Positions 16,337 through 61,969 of a stretch of DNA of 64,000 nt are shown piece by piece. The translations under genes were made by a program, and so were the position numbers. The notes beneath the pieces are model-generated. The model made no database searches. It had not been told where the DNA came from and saw only the letters and a program-made list of their open reading frames with translations. Positions within the stretch are counted from its first letter, which is position 1; each line of letters begins with the position of its first letter. Source of the stretch: Bifidobacterium primatium (GTDB taxonomy: Bacteria; Actinomycetota; Actinomycetes; Actinomycetales; Bifidobacteriaceae). The stretch covers positions 124,001 through 188,000 of the forward strand of contig NZ_PEBI01000003.1 in the NCBI RefSeq assembly GCF_002802875.1, in the 5' to 3' direction.

Positions 16337-16405
16337 TTGTTTTGCCATGCCGGGCGGTGCTTGTTTTGTGCGGTAAATGGTTCATGAGCACTTCGGGCTT
16401 CGGAT

Positions 16406-34621: not shown

Positions 34622-34733
34622 ATCATCCTCCGTTTCTTCTGTCCCGTTCTTTCCATGGTTGCTCACTGTTTCCCGCCATGGAGCCGACCTCTTGCCGGCG
34701 TGTCGTGGCGGGAAACGGTAAGTGACCGATTCG

Positions 34734-36932: not shown

Positions 36933-36967
36933 ATGCCCTACCTTCATCCCGCAGGCCTCATGGCCTG

Positions 36968-39655
36968 TCAGAAGTCGAATCCGTCGTCGGCGAAGAGACT
37001 GCGTTTGAGCAGATAGTCGGCCTTCTGCTCCAGCATACGCCGCTGGTTGCTGCCGGCGATCCGTTCGGACAGGCGCAACTCCACCATCGTGTCGTTGAAC
37101 CGGTCGGCCTCGCTCGTCAGCAGGAACGTCGCCGCCACATGACGGTCACGCGCCTCGGGGCTTTCGGACAGGAACGTTACCGGCACCTCGTTGGAGATCG
37201 GCACCGCATCGCCGCCGGCGACGCCGTACAGCCCTGCGAACACGGTGCGCTGCGCCACCTTGTCGCCCACCGGCTCGGTCTGCTGGAACTCCACGGTCAG
37301 CTGGCCGGTGGTGATGCGGTCAGTCTGCTGCAGAATACGGAACTCGACGGGCCTGACATCCTGCGCCGCCGACCGTCCCTTGCTGATGCGCACGACCGGC
37401 ACGACGATCTCAGGCAGCGAGGCGCCGCCATGCACGTACCGCACGCCACTGCCCTGCTTCCGCAGCCGGTGGATGGAAACGGGCACCTGCACGCTCACGC
37501 CCTCGCCGTCGGCATCCTCCAATCCGAGCTGCACGGCCGTGAACGTGGTGAACGAAGGGGATTCGGCCAGGTTGGAACCGATAACGAACCGGCGTTTGCG
37601 CTGCCATACCGCGTCGCCCTTCGGCTGTTCGCTCAGCCATTCGCCGTCGGCCACGTCATGGTCCTGATACAGGAACCCATGGTCGGCGGTCACGATCATG
37701 TTGGTCACGTTCGCGTTCGCCAGCTTCTTCACGATGCCGTCCAGTTCGACGATGGCGCGTTCGCAGGCGTCGAACGTGGATGCCTCATCGCTTTCTCCGG
37801 CATGGTCGATCGTGTTGTGGAACACGTAGATCACCTTGTGGGACTTCACCAGCTCGCGGGAGTCTTCACGGTTGAGCCGCATCAGATCCTCGGCCTTCAC
37901 GGCGGCACCTCCCACCTTCGCGAGAATGGCGTTACGGTTGTCGGCACCCTGCGACGGCATGCCGTCGACCAGCACGCCGTAATGGTCGTTCGTGCTGAAC
38001 GTCAGCGTCCTGTGTGGCAGCAACGCGGCCATGCCCAGCTGCGTGTATGAAGGCAGCACGCTCAGCTGGGCCTCGGTCGTCGCATTCCAACGGTTCTGCG
38101 AGCGCATCCAGTCGGCGAAGGATTGTGCCACCTCGTATCGCAGTGCATCGGAGATGATGACGGCGATCTTCCTGCCGCCGTCCACGGTCTTGTGCACGTA
38201 TTTCCGGTAGAAGTCCCGTTGCACCGGAACATCCTTGATGCCCCAATAATCGAGCTTGTCGACCTGCCGCTGCCATGTCTCACCGAGCCGGGATTGGAAC
38301 CGTGAATAGCGAAGTTCTAGATCGTCGCGGATGGCCGACGCCTCCGCACGTCTGCCCTGCCGTTTCCATGCGCGGACGAACTCTCGATACGTTTGGTCTG
38401 CCCGGTACAGATGCTGCGCATACATGGCGAATCCTCGTTCGGGAGAATCGATACCGTCGATGGCCTCCTCGCATTCGTCGAGCGTGGCGCGAAGCCGGCT
38501 TGCCGCGCCGATGGCCTCATAATCGGTCCGGTAGTCGTCGTACCAGATGTGCGGTGTGCGCTCGCGGATGATGGCTTGTACGTCGTCGTCGGCTATCGTC
38601 TCGTTGCCGACCTCCTGATACAGGAGAGTCACAATCTGTTCGTCGACTTCGCTGAACAGCGAGCGTCGGATGAGTTTCTTCAACGGCATCGCGACGATGT
38701 CGCGGCTGAGCATGAGTTCGTCGAACACCTGTTCGGCAAGTTGTTTGAACGTGTCGGTGAAGGTGCGGTCGTTGCGCCAGCCTTCGAAGTCGCGTCGGAT
38801 GTTGGCGTACCGGTCGGGGCCGGCGTCGCCTTCGGAGAAGTCGTTCCATGCGAGTTTGAACAGCCACAGCACGAAGTCCTTGACCGTCGGGGTCTTGTTC
38901 GTCCCCATCGGCGCAAGGTCATATGGCATATCCGCCGGGATATCTCCCGGAATCTCATACCGGTAGATGCCGCTGGTTCCCTTCCAGTGGAAGTCCAATA
39001 GTCCGGCCTTGCGGATGCGATCGATGCCGCTGTCGTCGTCTTCGGCGTATTGTTCGAGCAGCCGACGCCAGATGTCCTGCAGGCTGTTGCGCCCATCCGG
39101 CAGATTGAGCAGCACGGCGATCATTTTCGCCTGCATGGTTCGTGCGTCGTCATTTGCGCTCATGCGTTCGGCGAGCGCAGCTACGTCGTCGTCATCATCG
39201 AAGAACGGTTTGGTGTGCTGCATCACGTCGAGCCATGCGTCGCGGGTTTCACCGTCGGCGTCCTTGGGCATGGTTTCGTTGAGGATGAGCATGAGCCGGT
39301 CGGCGGAGAAGACGGGCCCGTAGGCGAGTTCGAGGTCGAGCAGCCAGTTGTGTTCGTCGTCGGGGTGCTCGTTGCCGGGTTCTGCGGCGTTGCGATAGAT
39401 GAGGAACTTGGTGTCGGGCTGTTCGCGCAATACCCGGTATTTCACGCCGAACGGGTTGGTGTTGGTGAGTCTGATGAGTTCCACGTCACGCAGCGTCGCG
39501 TTCGTAGCCGTCGGGCCGACGAGCGTTGCCACGGCGTCGTCGTAGACGCCCTCGTTGTCCTCCCAGAACACGATGCGCCCTTCGCCGTTCGCCGACTCCA
39601 CGTATTTGCCGAATCGTGCCGCCAGCAGTGCGCTCAGCTGTTCGCTTCCACCCAT
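36968..39655 (-). CDS. pglZ: BREX alkaline-phosphatase-like protein PglZ
   Basis: An 895-residue core protein of type 1 BREX. The phosphatase-fold core shows IAVIISDALRYEVAQSFADWM (metal-binding Asp), FHNTIDHAGESDE and NVTNMIVTADHGFLYQD (late Asp-His). The N-terminal half is helical and recognisable as the PglZ lead-in (IVFWEDNEGVYDD). AAGGAGCAGC precedes the ATG at 39655. It follows the AAA ATPase gene by 31 bases and precedes brxL by 35, so the three are one transcript. Confidence 0.95.
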   Translation of the reverse strand: MGGSEQLSALLAARFGKYVESANGEGRIVFWEDNEGVYDDAVATLVGPTATNATLRDVELIRLTNTNPFGVKYRVLREQPDTKFLIYRNAAEPGNEHPDDEHNWLLDLELAYGPVFSADRLMLILNETMPKDADGETRDAWLDVMQHTKPFFDDDDDVAALAERMSANDDARTMQAKMIAVLLNLPDGRNSLQDIWRRLLEQYAEDDDSGIDRIRKAGLLDFHWKGTSGIYRYEIPGDIPADMPYDLAPMGTNKTPTVKDFVLWLFKLAWNDFSEGDAGPDRYANIRRDFEGWRNDRTFTDTFKQLAEQVFDELMLSRDIVAMPLKKLIRRSLFSEVDEQIVTLLYQEVGNETIADDDVQAIIRERTPHIWYDDYRTDYEAIGAASRLRATLDECEEAIDGIDSPERGFAMYAQHLYRADQTYREFVRAWKRQGRRAEASAIRDDLELRYSRFQSRLGETWQRQVDKLDYWGIKDVPVQRDFYRKYVHKTVDGGRKIAVIISDALRYEVAQSFADWMRSQNRWNATTEAQLSVLPSYTQLGMAALLPHRTLTFSTNDHYGVLVDGMPSQGADNRNAILAKVGGAAVKAEDLMRLNREDSRELVKSHKVIYVFHNTIDHAGESDEASTFDACERAIVELDGIVKKLANANVTNMIVTADHGFLYQDHDVADGEWLSEQPKGDAVWQRKRRFVIGSNLAESPSFTTFTAVQLGLEDADGEGVSVQVPVSIHRLRKQGSGVRYVHGGASLPEIVVPVVRISKGRSAAQDVRPVEFRILQQTDRITTGQLTVEFQQTEPVGDKVAQRTVFAGLYGVAGGDAVPISNEVPVTFLSESPEARDRHVAATFLLTSEADRFNDTMVELRLSERIAGSNQRRMLEQKADYLLKRSLFADDGFDF

Positions 39656-39686
39656 ATGCTGCTCCTTTCGCTTCCCAGTCATCCGA

Positions 39687-40796
39687 TCATGCCGCGGTCC
39701 GGCGCAGGTATTCGCGCAGGAACGGGACCGCGAAGTCGACTTCGCCGCGTTCCGTCTCCCGAATCACGTATGCGTCGAGCAGACGCTTGCGATAGGTGGC
39801 GGCATAATTGGCGCTTTTGCCCATGCGCTCGGCCACCTCCGCCGTGGATACGGCGCCGTCCGATTGCGCCATCGCCTCAAGGTATTCCCGATCCTTTGGA
39901 GACAGCCCGTGAAGTTCGGGGACGCAGACGGCATTGTCGAGATCGATGCGCGCCTCGGATATGCCGCCGCGAACATCCTCATCCTCTATAACGTTGGATT
40001 CCCTCATGTCGACGGCATCCCAGATATGGTAGCCGACCAGTTGAATCATGTACGGGTATCCATATGTCGCCTCGGAGGCCGTCCGCAGCTGCTCCTCGGT
40101 GATGGCCATGCCTGAGGCGGCGAAGGTCTCCGCGAATGCATTCTGCACCTCATCGACGGGAATGTCGGCGAGCACGTTGGTTTTCGCACGCCGCAGGAAG
40201 GTGATCACCTCGTCGTTGAACAGGTCGGAGACCATCTGCGGCAGTCCGGCGAATACGATGGCGATGTTGCGGCGCTCTCGTATCTGATGCTGAATGGCCG
40301 TGGCGATGGCGATCATGTCAGAGCGTTCCGCGGCCTGCGTCTCGTCGATGGTTATCAGCAGACCGGCATGGTGTTTCTCCAATGATTCCAACCGGTCGGC
40401 CATCGCCTTGCGCAGTGTTTCGGGCATGCGTTTCGGCGAGAGTTCCGCCTCGCCCAGGCTGATGCCAGCGCCGGCGAAGCTCACCGACGGCTTGATGGTG
40501 AAATGGTCCAGTACCGAGTCCTTGGACCGTAGTTCGTTGACCAGCCGCTCGCACAGCCCTTCCGATGCGGTCTCCTCGATGACGTCCCATTTTCGGGCAC
40601 GGGCACGGTCTCCGAACACGGTGAGCATCACCGTCTTGCCGGTTCCTCGTGCTCCAGTTATGAGCATGATGCGCCCGGGAGCTCCCACGCCGTTGTCGAG
40701 GCCTTTTTCGAAATCGCGGATTACTTTTCTGCGGCCGATGAGTAGCGGCGGTTCCCCTCCTGCCGTCGGCTTGAACGGGTTCTCCTTGGCTTGCAT
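39687..40796 (-). CDS. AAA ATPase with C-terminal winged helix, inserted in the BREX operon
   Basis: A 369-residue ATPase of the Orc1/Cdc6-like or AAA_16 type, common in bifidobacteria. Walker A is GARGTGKT (about residue 46), Walker B is GLLITIDETQA (about 145), and arginine-rich IRERRNIAIVFAGLP follows. The C-terminus is a winged helix (GAVSTAEVAERMGKSANYAATYRKRLLDAYVI). It is not a standard BREX gene. GGAGGAAGG precedes the ATG at 40796. It reads into pglZ and diverges from the RloA-like gene. Five 9-bp iterons in the shared upstream region are a plausible binding site for its winged helix (inference). Confidence 0.85.
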   Translation of the reverse strand: MQAKENPFKPTAGGEPPLLIGRRKVIRDFEKGLDNGVGAPGRIMLITGARGTGKTVMLTVFGDRARARKWDVIEETASEGLCERLVNELRSKDSVLDHFTIKPSVSFAGAGISLGEAELSPKRMPETLRKAMADRLESLEKHHAGLLITIDETQAAERSDMIAIATAIQHQIRERRNIAIVFAGLPQMVSDLFNDEVITFLRRAKTNVLADIPVDEVQNAFAETFAASGMAITEEQLRTASEATYGYPYMIQLVGYHIWDAVDMRESNVIEDEDVRGGISEARIDLDNAVCVPELHGLSPKDREYLEAMAQSDGAVSTAEVAERMGKSANYAATYRKRLLDAYVIRETERGEVDFAVPFLREYLRRTAA

Positions 40797-40835
40797 GATG
40801 GCCTTCCTCCCGTATCGGCTTTGATTCATCCTGAA

Positions 40836-40878
40836 ATCAAAACTATCAAAAGAATCAAAAATTTCAAAAGAATCAAAA
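40836..40878. repeat. Five 9-bp iterons in the divergent promoter region of the BREX locus
   Basis: ATCAAAA occurs at 40836, 40845, 40854 and 40872, with TTCAAAA at 40863, all exactly nine bases apart. The array is between the divergent ATPase (minus) and RloA-like (plus) genes. The region 40797-40998 is otherwise AT-rich with no further gene. Confidence 0.85.
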
Positions 40879-40998
40879 GTGAAACTTCTTTTAAACGAAA
40901 GTCCCGTCACCAACAGCATACTTTTTGCAAAAATCTGCGTTTTTTGCCTGTTTCTTGATATAGTTAACAAGAATACAAAGCAATCAAGGAAATGTATT

Positions 40999-42312
40999 AT
41001 GCTCATTGACTTCAGTTTCTCCAACTACAGAAGTTTCAAAGACGAGCAGTCGTTCTCAATGACTCGCGACACCAGATTCTCGGACGGGGAATTCGGCAAG
41101 CAGTCGACAATCACCGCAGTATATGGTCCGAACGCGTCCGGCAAGTCAAATTTCCTCAAGGCATTATGGACTATGGCCACATTGGTGCGAACCAGTTATA
41201 GTCAGGGCGACGCCACAACGTCCATTCCCCGGGATCCATTCCTTCTGCGAAGCAACGCCCGCGGAATCGAATCGATGTTCTTCGCGGATTTTCTGGCATC
41301 CGACGGACAACGCTACCAGTACTGGTTCCGATGCGACGATAAAACCATCCTGCATGAGGAACTTTCATTGTTCAGAATCATAGGGGATAGACTTTCCACG
41401 CATTCAACGAGACTGTTCTCACGGAATGGCAGCGATGTCGATTTCGGCGGATCCTTCCGCGGCCCCAAGGCACAAGTGCGGAAAACAATCGAGCTGAGAC
41501 CGAATTCACTTGTACTGTCGGCAGCGGCCGCAGCCGGCATTGAATGCACACATGCCGCATTTGAATTCTTTTCATCAGGAATCGCCTATTGCGACGCCAT
41601 GGGATTTTCGGATGAACAGCCGCTTATCATCAGTGAGTTCAATCGCAACACCAGATTCTCCACACATCTGCAACAGTTGATTCGATACGCCGATTTCGGC
41701 ATCGACTCGATTCGGAGCGCTCCGGTGAACACCGACCCCATCATGCTGGATTCATTCAAAGAGCAGCTGAAGACACAGCTCGGCGCCGATTCCGAAAAAC
41801 TGGACCAGCTGTTCGACGCGCCAGCTGCCACTGAGCTGCGCTTTGAGCATCGCGGCGAGACAACCGCCCAGTTCGGCGTGCAGAATGAGTCCCAGGGCAC
41901 GCTGGCCGCGTTATCGTTCTTCTCACTGGCCCTACGGCAGCTGGCTCGCCCTACGGTGACGTTGATCGATGAGATAGACACCAGCCTGCATCCCACTTTG
42001 GTCGAGGAGTTCATCCGGTTGTTCACCGACCCGGAGACAAATCCCCACGGCTCGCAAATCATCTTCACCACTCACGATGCTTCGCTGATCAATACGTCCG
42101 GAGCGGAGGACCGGCTTATCGGCCCGGATCAGGTGTGGCTGGTGGAGAAAACAGCCTCAGGCGATTCGGAACTATATCCCGTGACCGATCTGAATGTGCG
42201 GCGGGAGGAAAACATCGGCAAGAATTATCTCAACGGTATTTACGGGGCCATTCCCAAGCCAAGCTTCCACATGATGTTCGCGCGAATAATGGAAGAGGAT
42301 GATGCGTCATGA
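40999..42312 (+). CDS. AAA15-type ATPase (RloA/AbiLi-like)
   Basis: A 437-residue ABC/RecF-like ATPase. It begins FSFSNYRSFKDEQSFSM, the start typical of AAA15 proteins; Walker A is GPNASGKS (about residue 43), and the C-terminal half has QGTLAALSFF, Walker B VTLIDEIDTSLHP and FTTHDASLI. Similar proteins pair with TOPRIM or RloB partners in RloAB, AbiL and PARIS defence. AAGGAAATG precedes the ATG at 40999. The gene overlaps rloB-like by ATGA. Lower G+C than the BREX genes and opposite orientation suggest separate acquisition. Confidence 0.9.
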   Translation: MLIDFSFSNYRSFKDEQSFSMTRDTRFSDGEFGKQSTITAVYGPNASGKSNFLKALWTMATLVRTSYSQGDATTSIPRDPFLLRSNARGIESMFFADFLASDGQRYQYWFRCDDKTILHEELSLFRIIGDRLSTHSTRLFSRNGSDVDFGGSFRGPKAQVRKTIELRPNSLVLSAAAAAGIECTHAAFEFFSSGIAYCDAMGFSDEQPLIISEFNRNTRFSTHLQQLIRYADFGIDSIRSAPVNTDPIMLDSFKEQLKTQLGADSEKLDQLFDAPAATELRFEHRGETTAQFGVQNESQGTLAALSFFSLALRQLARPTVTLIDEIDTSLHPTLVEEFIRLFTDPETNPHGSQIIFTTHDASLINTSGAEDRLIGPDQVWLVEKTASGDSELYPVTDLNVRREENIGKNYLNGIYGAIPKPSFHMMFARIMEEDDAS

Positions 42313-42956
42313 GCCGCAGAAAAACTAAACTTCCGGCGCATGGCCGCAACGCCCGCAGAAGGCACCGCACCCGAGCCAAGCGATATCTTGTGGTTTGCGG
42401 CGGGGAGGTCACCGAGAAAGATTATTTCGAACATTTGGGCGCACAGTATGATGTCCAGATTACTGTGCGCTCAAAAATACGTACGCCCGCACAGCTTGCC
42501 GAGTATGCGGTCAAATGCATGGACGACGATGCCAAGAACAATGACGAGCAGGACAGATACGCCGCCGTCTTTGTGGTCGTCGATGTCGATGATTTCCACG
42601 ATCACAGTAAGGCTCAGCGTATCTGCAAGCAAAACGGCATCCAGCTCATTATCTCGAACCCCTGCTTTGAGGTCTGGCTCATCGACCATGTGCAACAATG
42701 CCCAGACTCCCATACCTCCACGCCCGATGTGGAACGATACGCGGCATCGTTGGGAGTCACGACCGGACCTCGGCACAAGTACGTTGAGTTTTCTCACATT
42801 GACGGGCACTTGTCGGATGCCGTTCGAAATGCAAGACGTCATAATACACAGGGGCGTCTCCCGCACCGCCGCCAGCTCACCGCGGGGCAGGAATCACAAT
42901 ACGCCCCATGGACGGATGTTGCCGATATGGTGAACGACATCATTCCGTCCTTGTGA
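42309..42956 (+). CDS. RloB-family TOPRIM-like protein
   Basis: A 215-residue RloB-type protein, the probable nuclease partner of the AAA15 ATPase. The TOPRIM-like acidic positions are visible: Glu in VVCGGEVTEKDYFEHL, Asp pair in AVFVVVDVDDFHDHSKA, and the SNPCFEVWLIDH motif. The N-terminus is very basic. It overlaps the preceding gene (ATGA at 42309-42312) and is convergent with pglX, whose end is 20 bases on. AbiLii, the toxic half of the lactococcal AbiL system, belongs to the same family (from memory). Confidence 0.88.
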   Translation: MSRRKTKLPAHGRNARRRHRTRAKRYLVVCGGEVTEKDYFEHLGAQYDVQITVRSKIRTPAQLAEYAVKCMDDDAKNNDEQDRYAAVFVVVDVDDFHDHSKAQRICKQNGIQLIISNPCFEVWLIDHVQQCPDSHTSTPDVERYAASLGVTTGPRHKYVEFSHIDGHLSDAVRNARRHNTQGRLPHRRQLTAGQESQYAPWTDVADMVNDIIPSL

Positions 42957-42975
42957 CCACTCGGAATCGGATGTT

Positions 42976-45900
42976 TCACTCCTCCAGCTTGTGGTGGGGC
43001 CAGGTCCAGGTGGCGACGTCCTTGCGCTTGCGGTCCAGGGCGGGGATGGATCGCAGGGCGCCGCCGAGACGCAGGTAATTGACGAGCACGCCGTCATCGA
43101 GATCGATGTCGAGGTTGCGGGTGGCGAGCGGATAGAGGACCTTGTCCTCGTATTCGCGGCATTCCGTGATGGCGGCCCGCATCTTCTCCCCCGCACGCAC
43201 GTCGCGCGCCGAATCAGAGGCGAGCAGACGGCCCGACTGCGCGTCGAGCTTGGCCACGTAGTCGCGCAGGTAGCCGAGCACGTTGCTCGTGGTGACCGGC
43301 GTGTACCGGTGCAAGCATACAAGAGCCCTGAACGAGCCCTTGTTGTCGCGACGGCTGGAATACATCCAGTAGATCGGACGGCTCTTGTACATCTTCACAT
43401 GGTCGTTGTAGAAGTCGTTCACGAAATACTTGCGCAGGGATTTGCCGAGCATGGATTCGGCATACGCCACGTTCTCGCCGAGTCGTTCCTCGCCGTAGAC
43501 GACGGCCAGGAACGTGCGGAAGCGGGAGACGATGTCGTCCTCGAACCATTCATCCGACGTGATCGGGATGACGTTGTCCTCGTCGGGCATGAAGCGCGGG
43601 TTCGGCACCTCGCGCAGGTAGTTGTCCAACGTCTGGCCCTGCGAGGCGAGGATGAGGCCCGGCTTGTCGATGCTGTAGCGGCCGAACATGCAGCCGACGG
43701 CGTACGAGATGAGCTCCTTGACGAGGTCGCGGGCCATGAGCGTATCGCGTTCGGCCGGGTCAGCTTTCGGATACGCGAACGCCGGATTGCGTTTCAGCGA
43801 GACGCGTTCCAACGGCACGTCACACGGCACTTCGTCACGCACCCCATACGCATCCGCCACCAGTTCGTTGTTGCGAGCCTCACGCTCCCGCTGCTCCTCG
43901 GCGATTCGCTTGCACCGCTCGATATACGCGGCAACGATTTCAGCCAGACTTCGGCCTCGGCCCCCGCTGGCGGGGGCTGTCAGCGCAGCTGACTGGGGGT
44001 GGCTGGTCTCTTCCGCAACCGTCCCCTCCACAATCGGCAACCCCACAAAATCCCACGACGTCTCAAAAGAGTCCCAATCGGACTTGGAGGTGGAGATGAG
44101 GGATTCGATGAGTTGCTTATTATCTTCCGTGTTGGAGGGCAAAGGGATTTTTTCGATATAACCCGGATGCAGATTAAGCGTTGGATTCAATCCATCAAGA
44201 ATCACTCGGGCGACAACTGAATTCAACAGTCCTAGAAGTGACACATTATCTTCGGATTGTGCTACGCCCGCTGCTGCATCAAACAGATGTCCCGCATAAT
44301 TAATACGGAAAGATTGCTCCCCGCTTGAAATAACAGTCCAACTAATTCCCGGCTTAAAAATTCGGTCAAGATTAAAATTCGTCGCTCGGACTCTGCTGCC
44401 ATCTTCTGTTAATTCATGCTGAATTGTGCACCCATCATGCTTCCAATTAACCAGGGACGACTCATTCCCATACCACCTGCGAAACTCCCCTCCCTTCGCA
44501 TACATAAACCATGTATAGCTGGACTCAGCCGCATGTCGCCTATCGGTTTCACTAAACCCAACCGCACACTGGTCGACTTCATGCCACAGCCTAACGAATT
44601 TGTCATTATTCGCAGTCACCATACCCTTAGATACACGGGTAGTATCACCGAGATTATGCCCGGAACGGAAAACATTCATCACTCCAGCCGGAAGCCAGTA
44701 CACGATGGGCGAGCCGGGAATCCGCGTGAAATCATCCTGATCACACTCATAGAAATGCCTAGCCATAGGAGCCTCATCCAAAAACTTGCCGTTCAAGACA
44801 GCCCGGTGAGCGGCGATAATCTCCCGTGAGCGAGGGCCCTGCTGCTTTGCACCGACGAAATCACTCAGCCGAACAAAGCAGCTCTTCTCATCAGAAAGAC
44901 CTCGTTCCAATACAAAAGTACAAATGGGTACAGTAGCCCCATCGAAACCAGAGTATTCAAGTTGAATCAACGACGACAAATGCTCACGGCTAATAATCCG
45001 CTGACGCAGCTTTTCGTAAGAGTTAATGAACATCCATACATACGGAGACATGAAACCGAGACGCCCATGAGCCGGCACAAGTAGAAGACATCTGTAAATG
45101 AACGCGGCGAACAGATCCGCTTTGCCGTCCTTGTAGTTGTGGTTTACGTAGCTCTTGAGCTCGGCACCCATGTTGTTCGAGCCCATGTACGGCGGATTGG
45201 CGACCACGGCCATGTATTGGCGTGCGAGGTATCGGGTCTGAGTGAGGACGGTTTCGGCCTTTGCCCTGAGGGCTTCGTGGTCGATGAGGGAGTCGCCGGT
45301 GAAGAAGGCCGGCTGGGCTGTGGGGGTGTCACCACCCTCAGTCCCGGCTTCGCCGGGCCAGCTCCCGCCAGCGGGAGCCGAGGCCGACTTCGTCGAGGCG
45401 GCGAGGTCGGCGAGCTCCTTCGATGGCTGGATGAGGGAGCCGGTGATGTTGGCCTGGGCGTATGTGTTCCAGATTTCGGGGTCGAATTCCACCTGGTACA
45501 TGCGGTTGAGCTCGTTTGCCTCGTCATCGGTGAACGACACCGGCTCGATGCGCCGGATGTGCGGGCGCACGCCGCGGTTGCGGCGGAAGAAACGACGGTA
45601 ACGGTCGCGCGCCTTCATCAGCAGTGCGAACTCGGCCAGGTTCGCCGCACGCTCGTCGATCTCCATGCCATAGAGGTTGTGCTCCAGAATCAGCGCGGGA
45701 ATCTCGTTCGGGGAATAGCCCTGCTCCTCGTAGATGGCGTAGAGCAGGTCGAACGCGTAGGTGAGCATGTGGCCGGAACCGCAGGCGGGGTCGCATACGG
45801 TGAGGGATTCGGGGGTGGAAAGATCCTTCGACTCGCTACGCTCGCTCAGGATGACATTGGGGACAGAGGGATCCGAGGACTCAGGGATGTAATACTCCCA

Positions 45901-46779
45901 CTGTTTGGAAAGGTGGGATTCGGGGTGGGATTGGGTCCAGAGGCGGCCGACGGTGTTCTGTACCAGGTAGCGTACGATCCAGTCCGGGGTGAACAGCTGC
46001 GTGGCGGCCGGAATCTCAGCCGCGCCGGCCTTGCCGCTCTTCTTGAATCCGGCCATCACCTCGTCCTTGCGCTGGGAGATGTAGAACTGGTACAGCCAGC
46101 CGATGATCTCCACGTTGCCGCGCTGCTCGCCTGCGGCATCCACCGTGATGCAGTCCTCCGGGCTCATGGCCTCCAATGCACGACGCAGCACCGAACCCGA
46201 CGCCAGCAGATCCGCCGGCATGAGCAGCTCGTCCACGCCGCGGTCAAGGTTCTCCTCACCTTCGAACATGGAGGGAATCGCATCATGCCAGTGCCGGCAG
46301 TACGCCTGCAATAGCAGACCATACGCCTCGCCCTGCGGGTCGTCGCTCGCACGCGTGCCATCGATCAGCGCCTCGACCGCGCTCTGCACGCCGGCCGTGC
46401 GGTTCGCACGATTCTCCTCGAACACGGCCGGATCATACACACCGCGCAACGCCTCCGACAGCACCTGCGGCAGGCCGTTCACATCGGCCACATCCTCCGC
46501 GGACACCACATGCAAATCCGTATATCCCAGCACATCCATGTACCGCAAGGCGATGATGCGGTTGAACCATCGGTACGCATACCGTTCCGTCACGGCGGCG
46601 AAGCCGGTGTCGCCGCCGCCCTCCGCCCTGATGATCTCCTCCAGGCGGGCGACCACCTTCGGCATGTCCGCGCGGGCTCGGGAGGCGGGCTCCAACGCCG
46701 CCCTCATGCGGGCGGCGATCGACGTCATCAGTTCGGTGCGCGATTCGGCGGCGAACGCCTGGAGTCTGTTCGTATTCAC
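42976..46779 (-). CDS. pglX: BREX adenine-specific DNA methyltransferase PglX
   Basis: A 1267-residue methyltransferase marking self DNA (N6-adenine) in type 1 BREX. Motif I is DPACGSGHML (about residue 330) and the catalytic motif is VANPPYMGSNN (about 528). The region after it, residues about 590-920, is the target-recognition part and has lower G+C. The C-terminus is conserved (FMPDEDNVIPITSDEWFEDDI). Oddities: in-frame repeat insertions at residues about 309-320, 465-482 and 926-943. The start overlaps the brxC stop (ATGA). Confidence 0.95.
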   Translation of the reverse strand: MNTNRLQAFAAESRTELMTSIAARMRAALEPASRARADMPKVVARLEEIIRAEGGGDTGFAAVTERYAYRWFNRIIALRYMDVLGYTDLHVVSAEDVADVNGLPQVLSEALRGVYDPAVFEENRANRTAGVQSAVEALIDGTRASDDPQGEAYGLLLQAYCRHWHDAIPSMFEGEENLDRGVDELLMPADLLASGSVLRRALEAMSPEDCITVDAAGEQRGNVEIIGWLYQFYISQRKDEVMAGFKKSGKAGAAEIPAATQLFTPDWIVRYLVQNTVGRLWTQSHPESHLSKQWEYYIPESSDPSVPNVILSERSESKDLSTPESLTVCDPACGSGHMLTYAFDLLYAIYEEQGYSPNEIPALILEHNLYGMEIDERAANLAEFALLMKARDRYRRFFRRNRGVRPHIRRIEPVSFTDDEANELNRMYQVEFDPEIWNTYAQANITGSLIQPSKELADLAASTKSASAPAGGSWPGEAGTEGGDTPTAQPAFFTGDSLIDHEALRAKAETVLTQTRYLARQYMAVVANPPYMGSNNMGAELKSYVNHNYKDGKADLFAAFIYRCLLLVPAHGRLGFMSPYVWMFINSYEKLRQRIISREHLSSLIQLEYSGFDGATVPICTFVLERGLSDEKSCFVRLSDFVGAKQQGPRSREIIAAHRAVLNGKFLDEAPMARHFYECDQDDFTRIPGSPIVYWLPAGVMNVFRSGHNLGDTTRVSKGMVTANNDKFVRLWHEVDQCAVGFSETDRRHAAESSYTWFMYAKGGEFRRWYGNESSLVNWKHDGCTIQHELTEDGSRVRATNFNLDRIFKPGISWTVISSGEQSFRINYAGHLFDAAAGVAQSEDNVSLLGLLNSVVARVILDGLNPTLNLHPGYIEKIPLPSNTEDNKQLIESLISTSKSDWDSFETSWDFVGLPIVEGTVAEETSHPQSAALTAPASGGRGRSLAEIVAAYIERCKRIAEEQREREARNNELVADAYGVRDEVPCDVPLERVSLKRNPAFAYPKADPAERDTLMARDLVKELISYAVGCMFGRYSIDKPGLILASQGQTLDNYLREVPNPRFMPDEDNVIPITSDEWFEDDIVSRFRTFLAVVYGEERLGENVAYAESMLGKSLRKYFVNDFYNDHVKMYKSRPIYWMYSSRRDNKGSFRALVCLHRYTPVTTSNVLGYLRDYVAKLDAQSGRLLASDSARDVRAGEKMRAAITECREYEDKVLYPLATRNLDIDLDDGVLVNYLRLGGALRSIPALDRKRKDVATWTWPHHKLEE
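43951..44002. repeat. Palindromic repeat module inside pglX (copy 1)
   Basis: A module of about 52 bases with a first hairpin (GCCCCCGC/GCGGGGGC) and a second (GTCAGC/GCTGAC). It is an inverted counterpart of the module at 45332-45387: 29 bases match with two differences, the inner hairpin differs in both arms. It is read in frame as part of pglX, encoding PQSAALTAPASGGRGR. Confidence 0.8.
45332..45387. repeat. Palindromic repeat module inside pglX (copy 2, inverted)
   Basis: Inverted copy of the module at 43951-44002 with hairpins GCTCCCGC/GCGGGAGC and CCCGGC/GCCGGG. It is translated as ASAPAGGSWPGEAGTEGG in pglX. The pair encloses the low-G+C recognition region. Confidence 0.8.
45821..45855. 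repeat. SERSESKDL-type dispersed repeat inside pglX
   Basis: About 35 bases (AGATCCTTCGACTCGCTACG onwards to 45855) match a dispersed bacterial repeat whose complement encodes ILSERSESKDL. It contributes VILSERSESKDLS in frame, about 15 residues before the methyltransferase motif I. Confidence 0.7.
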
Positions 46780-49700
46780 AGCAGGATCTTCTTTCCTTCG
46801 TTGATGGCATGGATGAGGGTGCGTCGGTAGGATTCGAGGAAGGTATCCACGTCATGCTCGTTCTCCAACGCCGTCACCGGCTTGGGAACGGGAATGGTGG
46901 TGATGACCACGCTTCGCCGCACGACGGATGTGACGGATGCCCCATCGTCGTGAACGGTTTTGGCGACGTGACGGCCGGAACGTTGCGATTCCTCCGCCTC
47001 CTCACCGGTGCCCGGCTGCTCGGAACGATGCGATGTATCGGTAGCGGGCGTCTCGTCAGGCTTACGGGATTCGACGGTCTTCTCATGCTGACGGGCAAGC
47101 GCCTCGTCCAGCTGCGTCATGAGCGTGGCATACAGGCTCTGCTGTACGACATCCGCGTTCTGCCGGATGTCGGCGATGTACTTGGCGCTTCCCGCCTTGC
47201 CCGCGAACTCGTCCAGCCTCCGGCCCACCAGCTGCCGCACCGACTCGTCCACGTTCGCGTACGAGTCGGATTGCATAATGCTTTCGCGCACCGAGTCGAT
47301 GACGGCGAGCGCCTGCGAGCGCTCCTGTTCGATCAGCCGGTCCAATGCGGCGCGCAGTTCGTCCACCATGGTCTTGAGCTGGTTGATGCGGTTGCCCCGG
47401 TGAAGGTTCGGGTCGTTCGCCAATGTCAGGGTGTCATCGCGCTTCCGCTGTACGTCAGCCGGCGCAAGCGTGAAGTTCGATTCGTTGTCGTGCAGGTATG
47501 CCATGCAATCGCTGAGCACGGTCTTCTGCGCGCCGTTGAGTATCTGCCGGATCGGCGAGACGATGTCGTCCTTGTCGTCGAGCAGCTGTTCGTCACCGTC
47601 CTCTTCGTCGTCGGTGATGAACGATTCGAGCATCCACTGGTCGCCGTGCGCCACCGCCCGGTTCAGACGTGCGATGACTTCATCCAGTCGCTTGGTGAAC
47701 GCGAACCGGTTGTTGACGTCGCGCAGGTGCCGCAGGTCGGCGGCCTCGTCGCTGAGCGCATCGCGTATGGCCGCGGCCATGGCCGGCGGATCGGATGGCA
47801 GACCCGACTCCGGGGCGTCGAAGTAGTCGCCGTAGAATCGGCGCAGTCGGCGCACCTTGGCCGCGTCGTACTGTTTGGGCACCTCCACGACGATGGAGTT
47901 CTGCTTCTTGGTGCTGGTGAGCACGGCGACGGCTTCGGTGCGTTCCACCTTGCGGCTGTCGACCATGAGCGTGACCTGCCCCGTGCCGTACAGGTGCAGC
48001 AGACAGGCCAGCACGGCTGCGTAGGGCCAGCCGTACGGCGGCTCGCCGTAGTGCGAGATGACGGCGTGCACCGTGGGTTTGACGGTCTTCGACCGCATGA
48101 TGAACGAGAGCACGTCCTGCGCCGGCGCATCGATCTTGGAGCGGGCGTCCGAGGTGCCGGGCAGTGTCTCCCCGTCCGGAATCGCGGCGTCGTCGAGTAC
48201 TTTGCCCAGCCCTTTCTCGTCGTAGCGTACGCCGGCGAGCATGGCGAGGTTGGGATAGTATTTGCCGATCATCAGACCCATCGCCTCGGCTATGCGACCT
48301 TCCGCGGTAGTGGACTTCAATTCGAGGGGCAGGCCGTTGTACGCGAACACGGCGTTCATGATCGATTCGCGCAGCGTGGTCTTCAACGTGCGTCTCATCA
48401 TCGACAGCGCCGTGTTCTTCTCGCCGATGATGCGCATACGCTGTTCGGAGGTCTCCTGGTTGCGCAGGTTCAGCTTCACGTATTTCGAGGTCTTCAGATA
48501 CATGACGGCGTCGTTAGTGAACGTCTTCTCGTCGGGCAGGATGATGCGCACCACGTTACGTTCGCCGGCGCCCTGCATGATCTTGGCGTCCACGTCCGTG
48601 CCGTCCAATGGCGTCACCAGGTGCAGTACCGTGGCCTGCGTCTGGCCTATGGTCGAGCCGTCGATGGTCAGACCGTAGCGGAACGGCGCCTTCTGCGGCC
48701 CGTATTCGATGCGATGCGTGCCGCCGCCGAGGATGTCCACGCCGAGAACCTCGCCGATGAACGAACGGATGTCGCCGTCGGTGATGTCGACGTTCTTGAT
48801 CTCCTTTTCAATCTCCTGCTCGTCGTTGGTCAGGTATTCGTAGAACTCGCCGTTACGGTGCACGTAGTTGCCGGCCTCCAGCACGTCGAGCACGCGGCGG
48901 ATGCGGTTCTCGAACTCGGGGATGTTCTCGTCGAAGCGTCCCAGCACGAGCACGCGTAGATTGCGCACCGTGGCCTTGAACCCCTGCACGTGCTTCACCA
49001 TGAGCAGTGCCTTGAGCAGGGAGAGGGCGAGCGGCTTGTCGTCGTTCTCGGGCAGTTGGCTGTTCGCCTCGTTGATGCGGTAGTTGGCGGAGGTCTGCAA
49101 GGTGCCGGCGATGCCGTCGTAGAACCTGCTGAACGGGATGATGCTGCCGAACGGCAGGCTTCGGCAGGCCATGAGCGCGATGCTCACCGTGCTGAGCATC
49201 GAACGTTCGCCCACGGACCGGTGCGCACCCTCGAAGAAGCCCGCATCGGACATGCCTCGCATGGCGTTGTGGAACAGGCCGAACTCGTAGTTCATGAACG
49301 GGTATGAGTCGACGAAATCGTCTTCGGAACCGAATTTGTTCGTGCGGAACTGTTGGGCGCCGCCCTCGCCCTGGAAGTCGAACAGCGTGCCGAGATTACC
49401 CTGCTGGCGGGCGAATAGCCGTTCGATCATCGGACGTGCCTCGTCGGTCTTGACGAGCAGACGCTTCTGGATCACCTCGATGGCGTCGGTGCTGTCGAGC
49501 CGCATGTTGATGTCGAACCGACCCTTGATCTTCGTCAGATCGATGCCCTGGTTCACGGTGCGGCCCTCGATGACCTTGTCGAGGTCCTCCTGCGAGGTGA
49601 CGAACACCCATGCGCGGCCGTTCGTGCGGGAGAACAGCTCCTCGGTCACGGTCTGCAGATTGAGCATGCGCTCCGGTTTGCCGCCGACGAACTGACCCAC

Positions 49701-50531
49701 CTCGTCAACGAGGAACAGGATGCGCCGGTTCGGCTCCTGTACGTCCAGCCAGGCGTTCACGTCGTCGGCGAAGTCGGCGATGGTGGGACGATACTGCGCC
49801 TGATAGTCGGCGATGATCAGACGGTCGTCACGTACCGGTTTGCCGGTGGCCTCGGTGAACGCCTCGCTGATCTCCTCCTCCCAGAACTGGGATTCGGCGC
49901 GCCCCTGCTCCCACGGTTTACCGACCTTCTGCTCGAACAGCTTCTTGAACGCCTCCAGCTTGCCGTTGTTGTCGAGGTCATGCTCGAATTTGGCGATGTA
50001 CCGGTTTGCACCGAAATAGCCGCGCGACTCGTTGAACACGCGGACGAACGCGTCGGTCAGCGCGTTCGGATTGTTGTTCTGCGCCTTGCTGTCGATGTTG
50101 AACAGCAGCGAGGTGGCGGGGATCTCCAGATTCCGGCGCAGCAGGGCCTCAAGCGTGTTGTTGCCCGCATCGGCCGCCTTGCGCATGAGCGTATGCACGG
50201 CCTGTTCGCGCGGGACCATGGTGGCGGCGTCGGCGAACGCCTCGGGCACGTCGCCGAGGATGTGCGAGAGGATCTTCAGCAGGTGAGATTTACCGGAACC
50301 GAAGTAGCCGGAGATCCACACGCCGTTCGTGTGGTGCGAGCCCGGCTCGTTGTACTCGTCCAACAGCATCTCCATGCTGTTCTGAATCTCGTTGGTCAGC
50401 ACGTATTCGTCGATCTCGTCCCTGAGGTTCTTGTCGTCGCTGGCCTTGACCACGCCGTCGATGCGCTGGTCGATGTTCTTGACGAACATGCTCCGCAACG
50501 TCATCATACCGACTTCCGATTCACTCCCCAT
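46776..50531 (-). CDS. brxC: BREX P-loop ATPase BrxC
   Basis: A 1251-residue core ATPase of type 1 BREX. Walker A is GYFGSGKSH near residue 74, with LFLVDEVGQF as Walker B near 265. The middle and C-terminal parts contain long helices, including LDRLIEQERSQALAVIDS. AAAGGAGCGAGC precedes the ATG at 50531. It overlaps pglX by the ATGA junction at 46776-46779. BrxC is required for both BREX methylation and exclusion in studied systems. Confidence 0.95.
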   Translation of the reverse strand: MGSESEVGMMTLRSMFVKNIDQRIDGVVKASDDKNLRDEIDEYVLTNEIQNSMEMLLDEYNEPGSHHTNGVWISGYFGSGKSHLLKILSHILGDVPEAFADAATMVPREQAVHTLMRKAADAGNNTLEALLRRNLEIPATSLLFNIDSKAQNNNPNALTDAFVRVFNESRGYFGANRYIAKFEHDLDNNGKLEAFKKLFEQKVGKPWEQGRAESQFWEEEISEAFTEATGKPVRDDRLIIADYQAQYRPTIADFADDVNAWLDVQEPNRRILFLVDEVGQFVGGKPERMLNLQTVTEELFSRTNGRAWVFVTSQEDLDKVIEGRTVNQGIDLTKIKGRFDINMRLDSTDAIEVIQKRLLVKTDEARPMIERLFARQQGNLGTLFDFQGEGGAQQFRTNKFGSEDDFVDSYPFMNYEFGLFHNAMRGMSDAGFFEGAHRSVGERSMLSTVSIALMACRSLPFGSIIPFSRFYDGIAGTLQTSANYRINEANSQLPENDDKPLALSLLKALLMVKHVQGFKATVRNLRVLVLGRFDENIPEFENRIRRVLDVLEAGNYVHRNGEFYEYLTNDEQEIEKEIKNVDITDGDIRSFIGEVLGVDILGGGTHRIEYGPQKAPFRYGLTIDGSTIGQTQATVLHLVTPLDGTDVDAKIMQGAGERNVVRIILPDEKTFTNDAVMYLKTSKYVKLNLRNQETSEQRMRIIGEKNTALSMMRRTLKTTLRESIMNAVFAYNGLPLELKSTTAEGRIAEAMGLMIGKYYPNLAMLAGVRYDEKGLGKVLDDAAIPDGETLPGTSDARSKIDAPAQDVLSFIMRSKTVKPTVHAVISHYGEPPYGWPYAAVLACLLHLYGTGQVTLMVDSRKVERTEAVAVLTSTKKQNSIVVEVPKQYDAAKVRRLRRFYGDYFDAPESGLPSDPPAMAAAIRDALSDEAADLRHLRDVNNRFAFTKRLDEVIARLNRAVAHGDQWMLESFITDDEEDGDEQLLDDKDDIVSPIRQILNGAQKTVLSDCMAYLHDNESNFTLAPADVQRKRDDTLTLANDPNLHRGNRINQLKTMVDELRAALDRLIEQERSQALAVIDSVRESIMQSDSYANVDESVRQLVGRRLDEFAGKAGSAKYIADIRQNADVVQQSLYATLMTQLDEALARQHEKTVESRKPDETPATDTSHRSEQPGTGEEAEESQRSGRHVAKTVHDDGASVTSVVRRSVVITTIPVPKPVTALENEHDVDTFLESYRRTLIHAINEGKKILL

Positions 50532-50620
50532 GCTCGCTCCTTTGCTCGTATTCCTCTGATTCGTAAGTCATGTTTCATATATGAGCGGATTGCATTCGTG
50601 TTGCAGTCCCGCCGCAACGA

Positions 50621-51322
50621 TTACTGCCCGCCGAGCGGGTCCTCCATGCTATTGAGGCTGAACGACCGATAGTAGTTGTCCGCTCCGAGACGGTCGAACA
50701 GACGCATCGTGGAGACCATGCTCGCCGTCTTCGCATATGTGCCGGGGAAGAACAGCACCACGGGACGCGACTGCTCGAACACCAGCTGGATGCGTTCCAT
50801 CAGCGTATGCGTGCGAATGTACGGATACACCCTGCCCACGCCGGTGATGAACACGATGTCGGCCTGGTGATGCTCCCGCGCCTCGCGATACCGTTCGGCG
50901 ATGGCGTTCATCAGATCGTCCTTGTCGGGGCTGAGCTTGTCTACCAACGACTGGAGGAACATGTCACCCACCTCCCCGTCCGGGGACGCCCGATGCAGGC
51001 GCGGCTCCTTCTTCAGCACGCGGTCGAAGATGCGGCTCTCCTGGAGCACCTCGATTGCCGTGTCATACAAATCGATGACCAGCACGCCCGGGGAGGCGTC
51101 GCCGGCCTCCGGCGTCATGGACTGCAGACGGTTCGCCAACTGCGCGATGCGCCGCTCCACCTCAAGCTCCTGGGAGGGCGGATATGCATAGATGTAGTTC
51201 GCCGGCTCACCCGCCGTGTCGCTGCCGTCGCGGAACGACTGACGACGCATGATGGCGAACAGGCTGTCGAATTCACGCTCGATGTCACGCGGCTCACGCT
51301 GCACCATGTTGGAAACCGCCAT
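50621..51322 (-). CDS. brxB: BREX protein BrxB (DUF1788)
   Basis: A 233-residue soluble protein of the DUF1788 family. The family marks are VLVIDLYDTAIEVLQE, IVFITGVGRVYPYIRTHTLMERIQ and RPVVLFFPGTY near residues 80-190. GAGGAGGGATG precedes the ATG at 51322. It lies 15 bases after brxA and 89 before brxC. Its exact role in the BREX complex is not settled. Confidence 0.93.
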   Translation of the reverse strand: MAVSNMVQREPRDIEREFDSLFAIMRRQSFRDGSDTAGEPANYIYAYPPSQELEVERRIAQLANRLQSMTPEAGDASPGVLVIDLYDTAIEVLQESRIFDRVLKKEPRLHRASPDGEVGDMFLQSLVDKLSPDKDDLMNAIAERYREAREHHQADIVFITGVGRVYPYIRTHTLMERIQLVFEQSRPVVLFFPGTYAKTASMVSTMRLFDRLGADNYYRSFSLNSMEDPLGGQ

Positions 51323-51337
51323 ACGTACATCCCTCCT

Positions 51338-51940
51338 CTACAATCCGGGCTCGCCCATCGGAAAGAATCCAAACGATTCCGGCCTGTCTCTCAGCATATC
51401 GGCAATCTCGGGACTCAGTAGGGAAGGCACGATGAGATTCCCCCGCTGTTCCAGCAGACCGGCCTCGAACATGGCGTGGAACACGTTCTGCCGCAGCTTC
51501 TTCGCCGTCGACTCGCTGAGACCCTCCAGCTCAGGATGCCACATGGCCTTCTTCAGCACGAACCGGTCGTAATCCACGTAGGTCACGGTCGGTATCCCCA
51601 TCAGATAATGGTCCCGCAGCACTTCGTTGGCGAACTCCCCCACCAGCGTGTAATGCCGGCACATCGCCACCCACATGAGTGCGGCCTGGTCACCTGATGG
51701 GGTCCCTTCATCGGCAAGATAACGCAATTCGTCTTCCGAAAGCGCACTGAGTCGTTTCACCGTTTCACCGGCGATGCGTTTGCCGGCGGCAAGCGTACGG
51801 ACCCCGAGCAGATTGTCGTCCGTCACGATTCGCCGGGCAACCGACCAATCCCCCTGCTCCAGAAACACGCGCGCAACGACGACACCCTGCGAAGCCAGCA
51901 GACCACCGACCGTAAACGACAACCGATACCGTTCCGCCAT
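51338..51940 (-). CDS. brxA: BREX protein BrxA (DUF1819)
   Basis: A 200-residue protein of the DUF1819 family, a DNA-binding helical protein and usually the first gene of type 1 BREX operons, as here. Recognisable segments are LSFTVGGLLASQGVVVARVFLEQGDW, VAMCRHYTLVGEFANEVLRDHYL and LRQNVFHAMFEAGLL. AAAGGAGCGC precedes the ATG at 51940. The 160-base gap upstream separates it from a divergent SWIM-domain gene and must hold the BREX promoter; I see no clear operator there. Confidence 0.93.
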   Translation of the reverse strand: MAERYRLSFTVGGLLASQGVVVARVFLEQGDWSVARRIVTDDNLLGVRTLAAGKRIAGETVKRLSALSEDELRYLADEGTPSGDQAALMWVAMCRHYTLVGEFANEVLRDHYLMGIPTVTYVDYDRFVLKKAMWHPELEGLSESTAKKLRQNVFHAMFEAGLLEQRGNLIVPSLLSPEIADMLRDRPESFGFFPMGEPGL

Positions 51941-52100
51941 CGTCGCGCTCCTTTCATCGTTTCCATTTCACGCGAATATTTCAGTTTATCACCTACTACA
52001 CGACCGGCGTTCGGACCCTAGCGCCACATGAGACCGCAACCGTTGGTCTCTCATGTCACTCATGGCTCCCATGATACGGCTCCGCGTTTACACTCGAATC

Positions 52101-56067: not shown

Positions 56068-56163
56068 GCCTTCATCCTCACTTTCCGAGCTTTCCGTCGA
56101 TACCGTCGGAAAACATGCATCGTATGTATATATGATGGCCACGTCCCGCAGCGGCCGGCGCCG

Positions 56164-61915: not shown

Positions 61916-61969
61916 ATTCAACCTCTTTCGTTCTCGTTCAACATGTCGGTCACGCGAGCGCCGTCCCGG

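What the first reader, a model, noticed from the sequence alone, without database searches (positions are those of the whole stretch)
36968..50531. Nested defence island: RloA/RloB-type pair and an extra ATPase inside a type 1 BREX operon
Standard BREX genes brxA-B-C-pglX are split from pglZ-brxL by a plus-strand AAA15 + RloB pair and by a minus-strand AAA ATPase that reads into pglZ. RloB/AAA15 pairs are related to AbiL and PARIS, which can be triggered by phage anti-restriction proteins. A nested guard that responds when BREX is inhibited is an attractive hypothesis.
Basis: partly seen in the sequence, partly recalled or inferred. Interest (0 to 1): 0.75.

Follow-up and report, generated by a model that had tools for sequence, protein, structure and literature searches.

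The report
Abortive-infection gene pair inside BREX operon
A complete phage-defence operon (BREX) in a bifidobacterium relative has a two-gene suicide-type defence module and an extra ATPase gene inserted in its middle; this middle slot is known to hold changing defence genes, so the module looks like interchangeable cargo and not a dedicated alarm for BREX failure.

Summary
Observation confirmed. An intact type 1 BREX set (window 34734-51940, minus strand) is split between pglX and pglZ by a plus-strand RloA/RloB (AbiLi/AbiLii) pair (40999-42956) and a minus-strand AAA_16 ATPase (39687-40829) that runs into pglZ. The nested-guard reading is only partly supported. Other RloAB loci show no BREX gene of 40 bits or more in the flanks held: 0 of 26 in the family, 0 of 80 GTDB, 0 of 80 viral (capped, overlapping sets). 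Sister G156 has the same BREX and ATPase, but a DUF6119 gene where RloAB sits. The pglX-pglZ slot is occupied in 17 of 22 family BREX loci, often by other defence-like genes. Slot cargo, PARIS in BREX and the anti-inhibitor idea are in print; the nested Salmonella PARIS did not respond to Ocr. Best reading: a self-contained abortive-infection module recently dropped into a known cargo slot. Less expected is the ATPase: it, or its remnant, heads a BREX unit in 4 of 4 BREX loci of its genus (one remnant, one degenerate BREX), and relatives carry private tandem repeats just upstream (25 of 27 family copies; control 0 of 60).

The parts
34734..36947 (-). brxL (Lon-like BREX protein, with a C-terminal phospholipase-D-like/MIT_C domain)
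   Evidence: TIGR02688 573.8 bits; PF13337, PF20442, PF16565
36968..39682 (-). pglZ (BREX-1 type A); likely start ATG at 39655, preceded by AAAGGAGC
   Evidence: TIGR02687 587.8 bits; sequence
39687..40829 (-). AAA_16 ATPase (start 40829 or, as in most close relatives, 40796); C-terminal stretch read as winged helix by inspection; ends 4 bp before the pglZ ORF
   Evidence: PF13191 1.9e-11; alignment A6
40836..40878 (-). tandem array of five 9-bp units (TTTTGATNN type, one with a mismatch, the last cut short) just upstream of the ATPase; only match of the three-unit pattern in the own genome
   Evidence: expected 0 (three-unit pattern) and 0.02 (two-unit pattern) in shuffles
40879..42991 (+). 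segment specific to this genome (rloAB cassette), G+C 0.531 against 0.597 for the whole block; sister G156 has a DUF6119 gene here
   Evidence: blastn homology with L089 stops at 40878 and resumes at 42992; G+C
40922..40998 (+). upstream region of rloA shared with L120 of a relative without BREX-1 PglZ; probable own promoter (no consensus promoter called there)
   Evidence: blastn alignment 40922-42945 to L120; scan
40999..42312 (+). rloA (AbiLi-like ABC/OLD-type ATPase); Walker A, signature and Walker B residues intact
   Evidence: PF13304 2e-34, PADLOC AbiLi 2.4e-84; alignments A2, A5
42309..42956 (+). rloB (AbiLii-like, TOPRIM-type effector); overlaps rloA by 4 bp
   Evidence: PF13707 1.4e-30, PADLOC AbiLii 1.4e-23; D92 invariant and E36 nearly so in 43 sequences
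42976..46779 (-). pglX (BREX-1 adenine methyltransferase)
   Evidence: NF033452 1171.9 bits
46776..50531 (-). brxC
   Evidence: NF033441 900.8 bits
50621..51322 (-). brxB
   Evidence: PF08747 3.6e-28
51338..51940 (-). brxA
   Evidence: PF08849 1.4e-44
34604..52045 (.). whole BREX + ATPase + RloAB block, absent from relative G157 at a collinear site
   Evidence: no direct repeat of 8 bp or more between the end stretches tested

Best explanation
The segment is an intact type 1 BREX whose pglX-pglZ junction, a known cargo slot, was loaded twice: with a solitary AAA_16 ATPase gene that now heads the pglZ-brxL unit, and with a self-contained RloA/RloB (AbiL-type) abortive-infection module on the opposite strand. 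Most likely mechanism of the module: RloA, an OLD-type ABC ATPase, holds RloB, a TOPRIM nuclease, inactive until RloA senses a phage product; RloB then damages cell RNA or DNA and the infection aborts. It adds a second, independent line of defence next to BREX and is not wired to BREX failure. Shown: gene content, intact motif residues, low dN/dS, a different gene at the same place in the sister genome, no BREX link elsewhere in the flanks held. Inferred: the trigger, the target of RloB, expression from an own promoter, and activity.
For: rloA and rloB overlap by 4 bp. RloA keeps Walker A, signature and Walker B residues in all of 29 sequences and H359 in at least 90%; RloB keeps D92 in all of 43 and E36 in at least 90%. 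dN/dS against G154 is 0.10 (rloA) and 0.16 (rloB), with synonymous distances above 1, so rough. Sister G156 is collinear at 88% on both sides but has a DUF6119 gene (L089 7200-8930) in place of RloAB. Homology with G154 (L120) runs from 77 bp upstream of rloA to near the end of rloB. The RloAB segment has lower G+C, 0.531 against 0.593-0.625 for the BREX genes. BREX genes near RloAB elsewhere: 0 of 26 family loci, 0 of 80 GTDB loci, 0 of 80 viral loci at 40 bits; in 396 phylum genomes RloB is found in 15 and BREX-1 PglZ over the cut-off in 6, together at one place only in the window. The slot holds other defence-like genes elsewhere: schlafen AlbA_2, HEPN/RES, Dsr1-like SIR2, OLD/Gabija-like, ApeA-like, a CBASS cyclase, AAA_13. 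Published: about 7000 of about 9000 genomes with pglZ and pglX have genes between them (PMC11341690 section 6).
Against: No activity is shown. F. nucleatum AbiLi gave no antitoxicity against its toxic AbiLii (PMC3985639 passages), so RloA holding RloB in check is uncertain. No promoter consensus was found just upstream of rloA. RloB fold and TOPRIM assignment rest on the literature (PMC10440598 passage) and residues: the structure prediction never ran and no solved structure matched. Many flanks are short: at least 5 kb on both sides in 19 of 26, 47 of 80 and 25 of 80 loci. About 5000 of the published slots hold no known defence system (PMC11341690), and 5 of my 20 Pfam-scanned cargo proteins had no Pfam hit.
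Confidence: 0.7

Rival explanations
1. Dedicated nested guard: RloAB senses a phage anti-BREX protein (DNA mimic or other inhibitor) or the blocked BREX complex and kills the cell, as PARIS does with Ocr.
For: Position inside BREX; RloA scores next best to AriA of PARIS; PARIS is triggered by Ocr (PMC9122126 passages); other family slots hold genes of guard-like families: an OLD-TOPRIM protein (L085) and an AAA_13 ATPase (L098).
Against: No BREX gene of 40 bits or more at 26, 80 and 80 other RloAB loci; the sister BREX lacks it; opposite strand; the nested Salmonella PARIS did not respond to Ocr or Gp5 and its deletion did not reduce defence (PMC11341690 passages).
Confidence: 0.12
2. The AAA_16 ATPase is a clade-specific BREX regulator: it binds its own upstream 9-bp array and so sets expression of ATPase-pglZ-brxL (or of the whole operon where it precedes brxA). 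Not exclusive with the best explanation.
For: It, or its remnant, heads a BREX unit in 4 of 4 BREX loci of the genus: before pglZ in G000 and G156, before brxA in G159, remnant with array before brxA in G153. Upstream arrays in 25 of 27 family copies and 15 of 16 wider copies with at least 33% identity, 0 of 60 control upstream regions; copies of one subfamily share one repeat type. Only 4 bp between the ATPase stop and the pglZ ORF. In Salmonella LT2 slot cargo supplies a pglZ promoter (PMC9009780 passages).
Against: Only two of the four loci have an intact ATPase in an intact BREX: G153 keeps a remnant, and in G159 the fetched stretch shows a partial brxA and no brxB, brxC or pglX. The four loci share ancestry. 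Most copies of the gene family lie away from BREX; 0 of 20 BREX loci outside the genus show it, though brxA is in view in only 14 of them. Over all 28 wider copies tested, 12 (periods 8-11) or 17 (periods 8-24) have a significant array; the wider periods and the 33% split were chosen after seeing the sequences. DNA binding is not shown.
Confidence: 0.25
3. RloAB is a toxin-antitoxin-like addiction cassette that stabilises the island, with little phage role.
For: A two-gene operon with a presumably toxic nuclease; F. nucleatum AbiLii is toxic in E. coli (PMC3985639 passages).
Against: AbiL is a lactococcal phage-abortive system (PMC10440598 passage); F. nucleatum AbiLi did not neutralise its AbiLii (PMC3985639 passages); the slot holds other defence-like genes.
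Confidence: 0.1

Closest known systems
PARIS (ariA-ariB) nested in Salmonella type 1 BREX (D23580, LT2)
   Same: ABC/OLD-type ATPase plus a second gene inserted between pglX and pglZ of a type 1 BREX (PMC11341690, PMC9009780 passages).
   Different: Here the second gene is RloB (PF13707), not DUF4435; [quoted passage not shown] an extra AAA_16 ATPase is present.
AbiL (abiLi/abiLii) of Lactococcus and RloA/RloB
   Same: PADLOC profiles AbiLi and AbiLii are the best hits for the two genes; two-gene order.
   Different: The lactococcal system is plasmid-borne (PMC10440598 passage, which also notes RloB in type I restriction operons); the meaning of Rlo (R-linked ORF) is recalled. Only 2 of 88 neighbour proteins of 17 family RloAB loci match HsdM.
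BREX auxiliary/backup effectors (PMC12839542 section 35, part 1 of 2 read)
   Same: OLD-ABC ATPase plus nuclease, schlafen and other effectors embedded in BREX loci, proposed as backup against counter-defence.
   Different: RloB and bifidobacteria are not named in the main text; supplements could not be read.
BrxR (WYL regulator of BREX loci; title and abstract listing, details recalled)
   Same: Like BrxR as I recall it, the ATPase stands at the head of a BREX unit.
   Different: No WYL domain found; AAA_16 ATPase; found mostly away from BREX.

Membership tests
Type 1 BREX | brxA, brxB, brxC, pglX, pglZ (type A) and brxL together | tested here: met
   TIGR02687, NF033452, NF033441, TIGR02688, PF08849 and PF08747 all over their cut-offs
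Type 1 BREX | site-specific adenine methylation and phage restriction | not testable with these tools
   needs PacBio methylome and phage plating
AbiL / RloAB | AbiLi-type ATPase next to an AbiLii/RloB-type protein | tested here: met
   AbiLi 2.4e-84, AbiLii 1.4e-23; PF13707 over its cut-off
AbiL / RloAB | abortive infection with a toxic effector | not testable with these tools
   needs expression and phage assays
PARIS | AriA-type ATPase (AAA_15/AAA_21) | tested here: met
   AAA_21 and AAA_15 over cut-off; AriA profile second best
PARIS | AriB / DUF4435 (PF14491) partner | tested here: not met
   only PF13707 found for the partner
BREX-dedicated guard | recurrent linkage of the module to BREX | tested here: not met
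   0 of 26, 0 of 80, 0 of 80 other loci at 40 bits, within the flanks held
BREX-dedicated guard | activation by an anti-BREX protein | not testable with these tools
   needs bench test
BrxR-type BREX regulator | WYL domain | tested here: not met
   the ATPase hits AAA models and ATPase_2 only
TOPRIM nuclease (RloB) | TOPRIM fold with E and DxD residues | tested here: inconclusive
   D92 invariant and E36 nearly invariant in 43 sequences; D94 nearly invariant in the 18-sequence alignment only; fold not modelled because the machine was busy

The most novel reading that the evidence does not exclude
The minus-strand ATPase, not RloAB, is the novel part. It belongs to an apparently undescribed actinobacterial family of solitary AAA_16 ATPases with a C-terminal winged-helix-like end, each close relative preceded by a private array of (mostly) 9-10 bp direct repeats whose sequence differs between subfamilies. 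In this genus such a gene-plus-array unit has come to stand at the head of BREX transcription units in two different positions, so that a self-binding ATPase controls when half or all of BREX is made, in place of a WYL-type BrxR.
Probability: 0.2. Interest if true: 0.6.

Novelty: new member of a known kind. Interest (0 to 1): 0.35.

Why it matters
As a defence locus it is one more instance of a published pattern: the pglX-pglZ junction of BREX as a revolving slot for other genes, here with an AbiL/RloAB pair in place of PARIS. It usefully separates slot-level linkage (strong) from module-level linkage (none found), which weakens guard stories built on a single nested locus. If the repeat-array ATPase does control BREX, it would give actinobacteria a BREX regulator unlike BrxR, and a testable function for a widespread orphan gene family.

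Tried and rejected
RloAB as PARIS: rejected, no DUF4435. RloAB as a companion of type I restriction: only 2 of 88 neighbour proteins at 17 family RloAB loci matched HsdM_N or N6_Mtase (PADLOC MTase_I also 2; both tables show the first 25 families of 85 and 96). Seven of the 24 loci listed were dropped (L110, L117, L119, L123, L124, L130, L131), one small ORF of L112 was dropped, and L134 and L135 were not listed at all. RloAB as prophage cargo here: not pursued; viral relatives are at most 40% identical. Island ends as attachment sites: no shared repeat of 8 bp or more in the tested end stretches. Solved structures: none for RloA or RloB profiles; for the ATPase only weak P-loop hits to KaiC. 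Promoter and terminator scans gave no excess over shuffles. Literature searches, listings seen only unless said: bifidobacterial BREX (20 of 456 listed), RloB or RloA with BREX (the one paper with both words RloB and BREX, PMC13268207, opened at both passages, lists them in separate tables of Citrobacter koseri), repeat-array ATPases (four unrelated papers, none). None listed describes this locus or this ATPase family by title; they cover open-licence PMC papers only.

Control for the no-link result: the BREX profiles built from family loci hit a BREX gene at E up to 1e-5 in 13 of 13 phylum loci fetched with the PglZ model, and in 12 of 13 at the 40-bit threshold used (L332 has only a 36-bit pglX hit; L322 and L334 overlap). 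Loci of other BREX types were not tested on purpose. A 25-bit pglX hit in L155 fell below the threshold and was not counted.

Full report
Check of the observation. Its family includes Bifidobacterium: the nearest relatives found by the named scan are Bifidobacterium and Bifidobacteriaceae records, and the length of a B. panos contig (150709) is that of contig C14 of genome G069 of the family set. All six type 1 BREX genes are present, open and on the minus strand, each with a model over its cut-off. Between pglX and pglZ lie, on the plus strand, rloA (40999-42312) and rloB (42309-42956), and on the minus strand an AAA_16 ATPase (39687-40829).

Anatomy. rloB ends 19 bp from the end of pglX, tail to tail. 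rloA and the ATPase are divergent and share a region of 169 bp (202 bp if the ATPase starts at 40796, as most close relatives do) that holds five direct repeats of the type TTTTGATNN (40836-40878). The ATPase stop lies 4 bp before the first possible pglZ start and 31 bp before the likely one, so pglZ-brxL is probably transcribed from the ATPase promoter or from inside the ATPase gene (inference). The best PADLOC hits of the pair are AbiLi and AbiLii. RloA keeps Walker A, ABC-signature and Walker B residues in all of 29 sequences and H359 in at least 90% (motif names by inspection). RloB keeps D92 in all of 43 sequences and E36 in at least 90%. dN/dS of rloA and rloB against G154 is 0.10 and 0.16, with synonymous distances of 1.1 and 1.65, so purifying selection is likely but the ratio is rough. 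Fold prediction was never accepted: the machine was busy at all ten tries.

How it came about. Relative G157 is collinear with the window on both sides at about 90% and lacks exactly 34604-52045, that is BREX, ATPase and RloAB together. Sister G156 is collinear at 88% over brxL-pglZ-ATPase and over the end of pglX, but where the window has 40879-42991 (RloAB) it has one DUF6119/TIGR04141 gene of 576 aa. The break points are the outer edge of the ATPase repeat array and the last codons of pglX. The RloAB segment has G+C 0.531 against 0.593-0.625 for the BREX genes and 0.607 for the ATPase. The ATPase is shared with the sister and RloAB is not; RloAB is the exchangeable part. RloAB of G154, a genome without a BREX-1 PglZ hit, aligns from 77 bp upstream of rloA to near the end of rloB, which suggests that the cassette carries its own promoter.

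Is the pair linked to BREX? In 189 family genomes, 24 have BREX-1 PglZ over the cut-off and 26 have RloB, at 27 loci; six genomes have both, and only the window has them together. I fetched the 26 other RloB loci and searched them with BREX profiles built from the family: 0 of 26 have a BREX gene of 40 bits or more. In 396 phylum genomes RloB is in 15 and BREX-1 PglZ over the cut-off in 6; again only the window has them at one place. The profiles hit a BREX gene in 13 of 13 phylum loci fetched with the PglZ model, 12 of 13 at 40 bits.

Is the slot special? Of 24 family BREX loci, 22 (window included) have pglX and pglZ on one stretch; L106 (contig end) and L107 (no pglX hit) were dropped. Five have a junction of about 40-150 bp and 17 hold 1.6 to 8 kb. 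Cargo includes schlafen AlbA_2 proteins (a cluster of 11 by BLAST, two of them short remnants; Pfam run on two), HEPN/RES, sce7725 and sce7726, a Dsr1-like SIR2, an OLD-TOPRIM protein with a neighbour that weakly resembles Abi_2/AbiD (below the Pfam cut-off), ApeA-like proteins, a CBASS cyclase, an AAA_13 ATPase (PADLOC PDC-S06) and a PemK toxin. Pfam was run on 20 cargo proteins, 17 of them from the slot (two from inside a split pglX, one from a brxC-pglX gap); five had no hit. PADLOC was run on 10; three had no hit. Among cargo identified by family, only the window's RloAB runs against BREX. The slot is published: of about 9000 genomes with pglZ and pglX, about 7000 had genes between them, about 5000 of these without a known defence system, and 2.21% of the other 2000 or so had PARIS (PMC11341690, section 6 read). 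PMC12839542 (section 35, part 1 of 2 read) catalogues OLD-ABC/TOPRIM and schlafen effectors in BREX loci and says that PARIS-like modules counter anti-BREX proteins. PMC9009780 (passages) reports two transcripts in LT2, brxA-pglX and cargo-pglZ-brxL, with a promoter for pglZ inside the cargo.

What RloAB most likely does. By family knowledge it is an abortive-infection pair: an OLD-type ATPase sensor with a TOPRIM-type effector (RloB related to OLD_TOPRIM by HHpred, PMC10440598 passage; F. nucleatum AbiLii toxic in E. coli but not neutralised by its AbiLi, PMC3985639 passages). The trigger is unknown. A guard of BREX remains possible but has no support beyond position, and the nearest tested analogue, PARIS in Salmonella BREX, did not respond to Ocr or Gp5 (PMC11341690 passages).

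The ATPase. Relatives occur in 74 of 189 family genomes, with up to 8 matches in one, mostly away from BREX (11 loci viewed). In the window's genus all four BREX loci have this subfamily at the head of a BREX unit: before pglZ in G000 and G156, before a partial brxA in G159 (whose fetched stretch shows no brxB, brxC or pglX), and as a remnant (array plus last codons) before brxA in G153. G160 has no BREX-1 PglZ hit but keeps the ATPase between a glnE-like gene and the antiporter-like gene that flank the island elsewhere (names by my reading). None of the 20 other family BREX loci shows it in the stretch fetched; brxA is in view in 14 of them. Just upstream of the gene there is a tandem array with a 9 or 10 bp period in 25 of 27 family copies, the window's own included (three 5'-truncated copies left out). 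Among 28 further copies, 27 from the phylum and one from the own genome (two truncated copies left out), 12 had a significant array with periods 8-11; with periods widened to 8-24 after viewing them, 17 of 28, and 15 of the 16 with at least 33% identity. Control upstream regions of rloA and BREX genes gave 0 of 60. The repeat unit is TTTTTGATA-like in the close subfamily and TTTTATATTC-like in most copies of the next, with yet other units further away. This fits a protein that binds its own array. That the protein ends in a winged helix is my reading of the sequence, not a tool result. Whether it regulates BREX is open; I give 0.2-0.25.

Novelty and score. BREX with a nested abortive-infection module is known; the RloB version in a bifidobacterial BREX is a new member of that kind. 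The main text of PMC12839542 does not name RloB, and the search for RloB or RloA with BREX found no paper that puts them in one locus; supplements could not be read. Interest 0.35, mostly for the ATPase with its private repeats.

Noticed in passing
window 40836-40878; L055-L084 and L361-L390 upstream regions: Solitary AAA_16 ATPase genes of actinobacteria carry subfamily-specific direct-repeat arrays immediately upstream (25 of 27 family copies; 17 of 28 further copies, 15 of 16 with at least 33% identity, 0 of 60 controls).
   Followed up: partly
window 55198-61921: JetA, JetB and JetC of a Wadjet system lie beside BREX; the fourth tested protein (55198-56142) has no JetD match, so the system may be incomplete.
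   Followed up: partly
window 45820-45855 (inside pglX); also L089 and L085: A stretch that reads VILSERSESKDL (VILSERSESKAL in L085) lies in a length-variable loop of PglX just before DPACGSG; it is also in the sister and in a BREX of another genus.
   Followed up: partly
L102 7161-10735 (G019): A SIR2_2 protein and a HerA-like (DUF87) protein sit between two halves of pglX, as if pglX were split by a SIR2-HerA pair.
   Followed up: no
L086 about 16370-16490 (G153): Upstream of brxA a repeat array is followed closely by the last codons of the ATPase: an internally deleted ATPase gene.
   Followed up: yes
L090, L093, L094, L096, L098, L099 (brxC-pglX gap) and L091, L094, L095 (before pglZ): One cluster of ATPases (AAA_14/DUF4143 by Pfam for the one scanned) recurs in bifidobacterial BREX loci; upstream sequences show palindromes by eye, and a significant tandem array in only 1 of 9.
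   Followed up: partly
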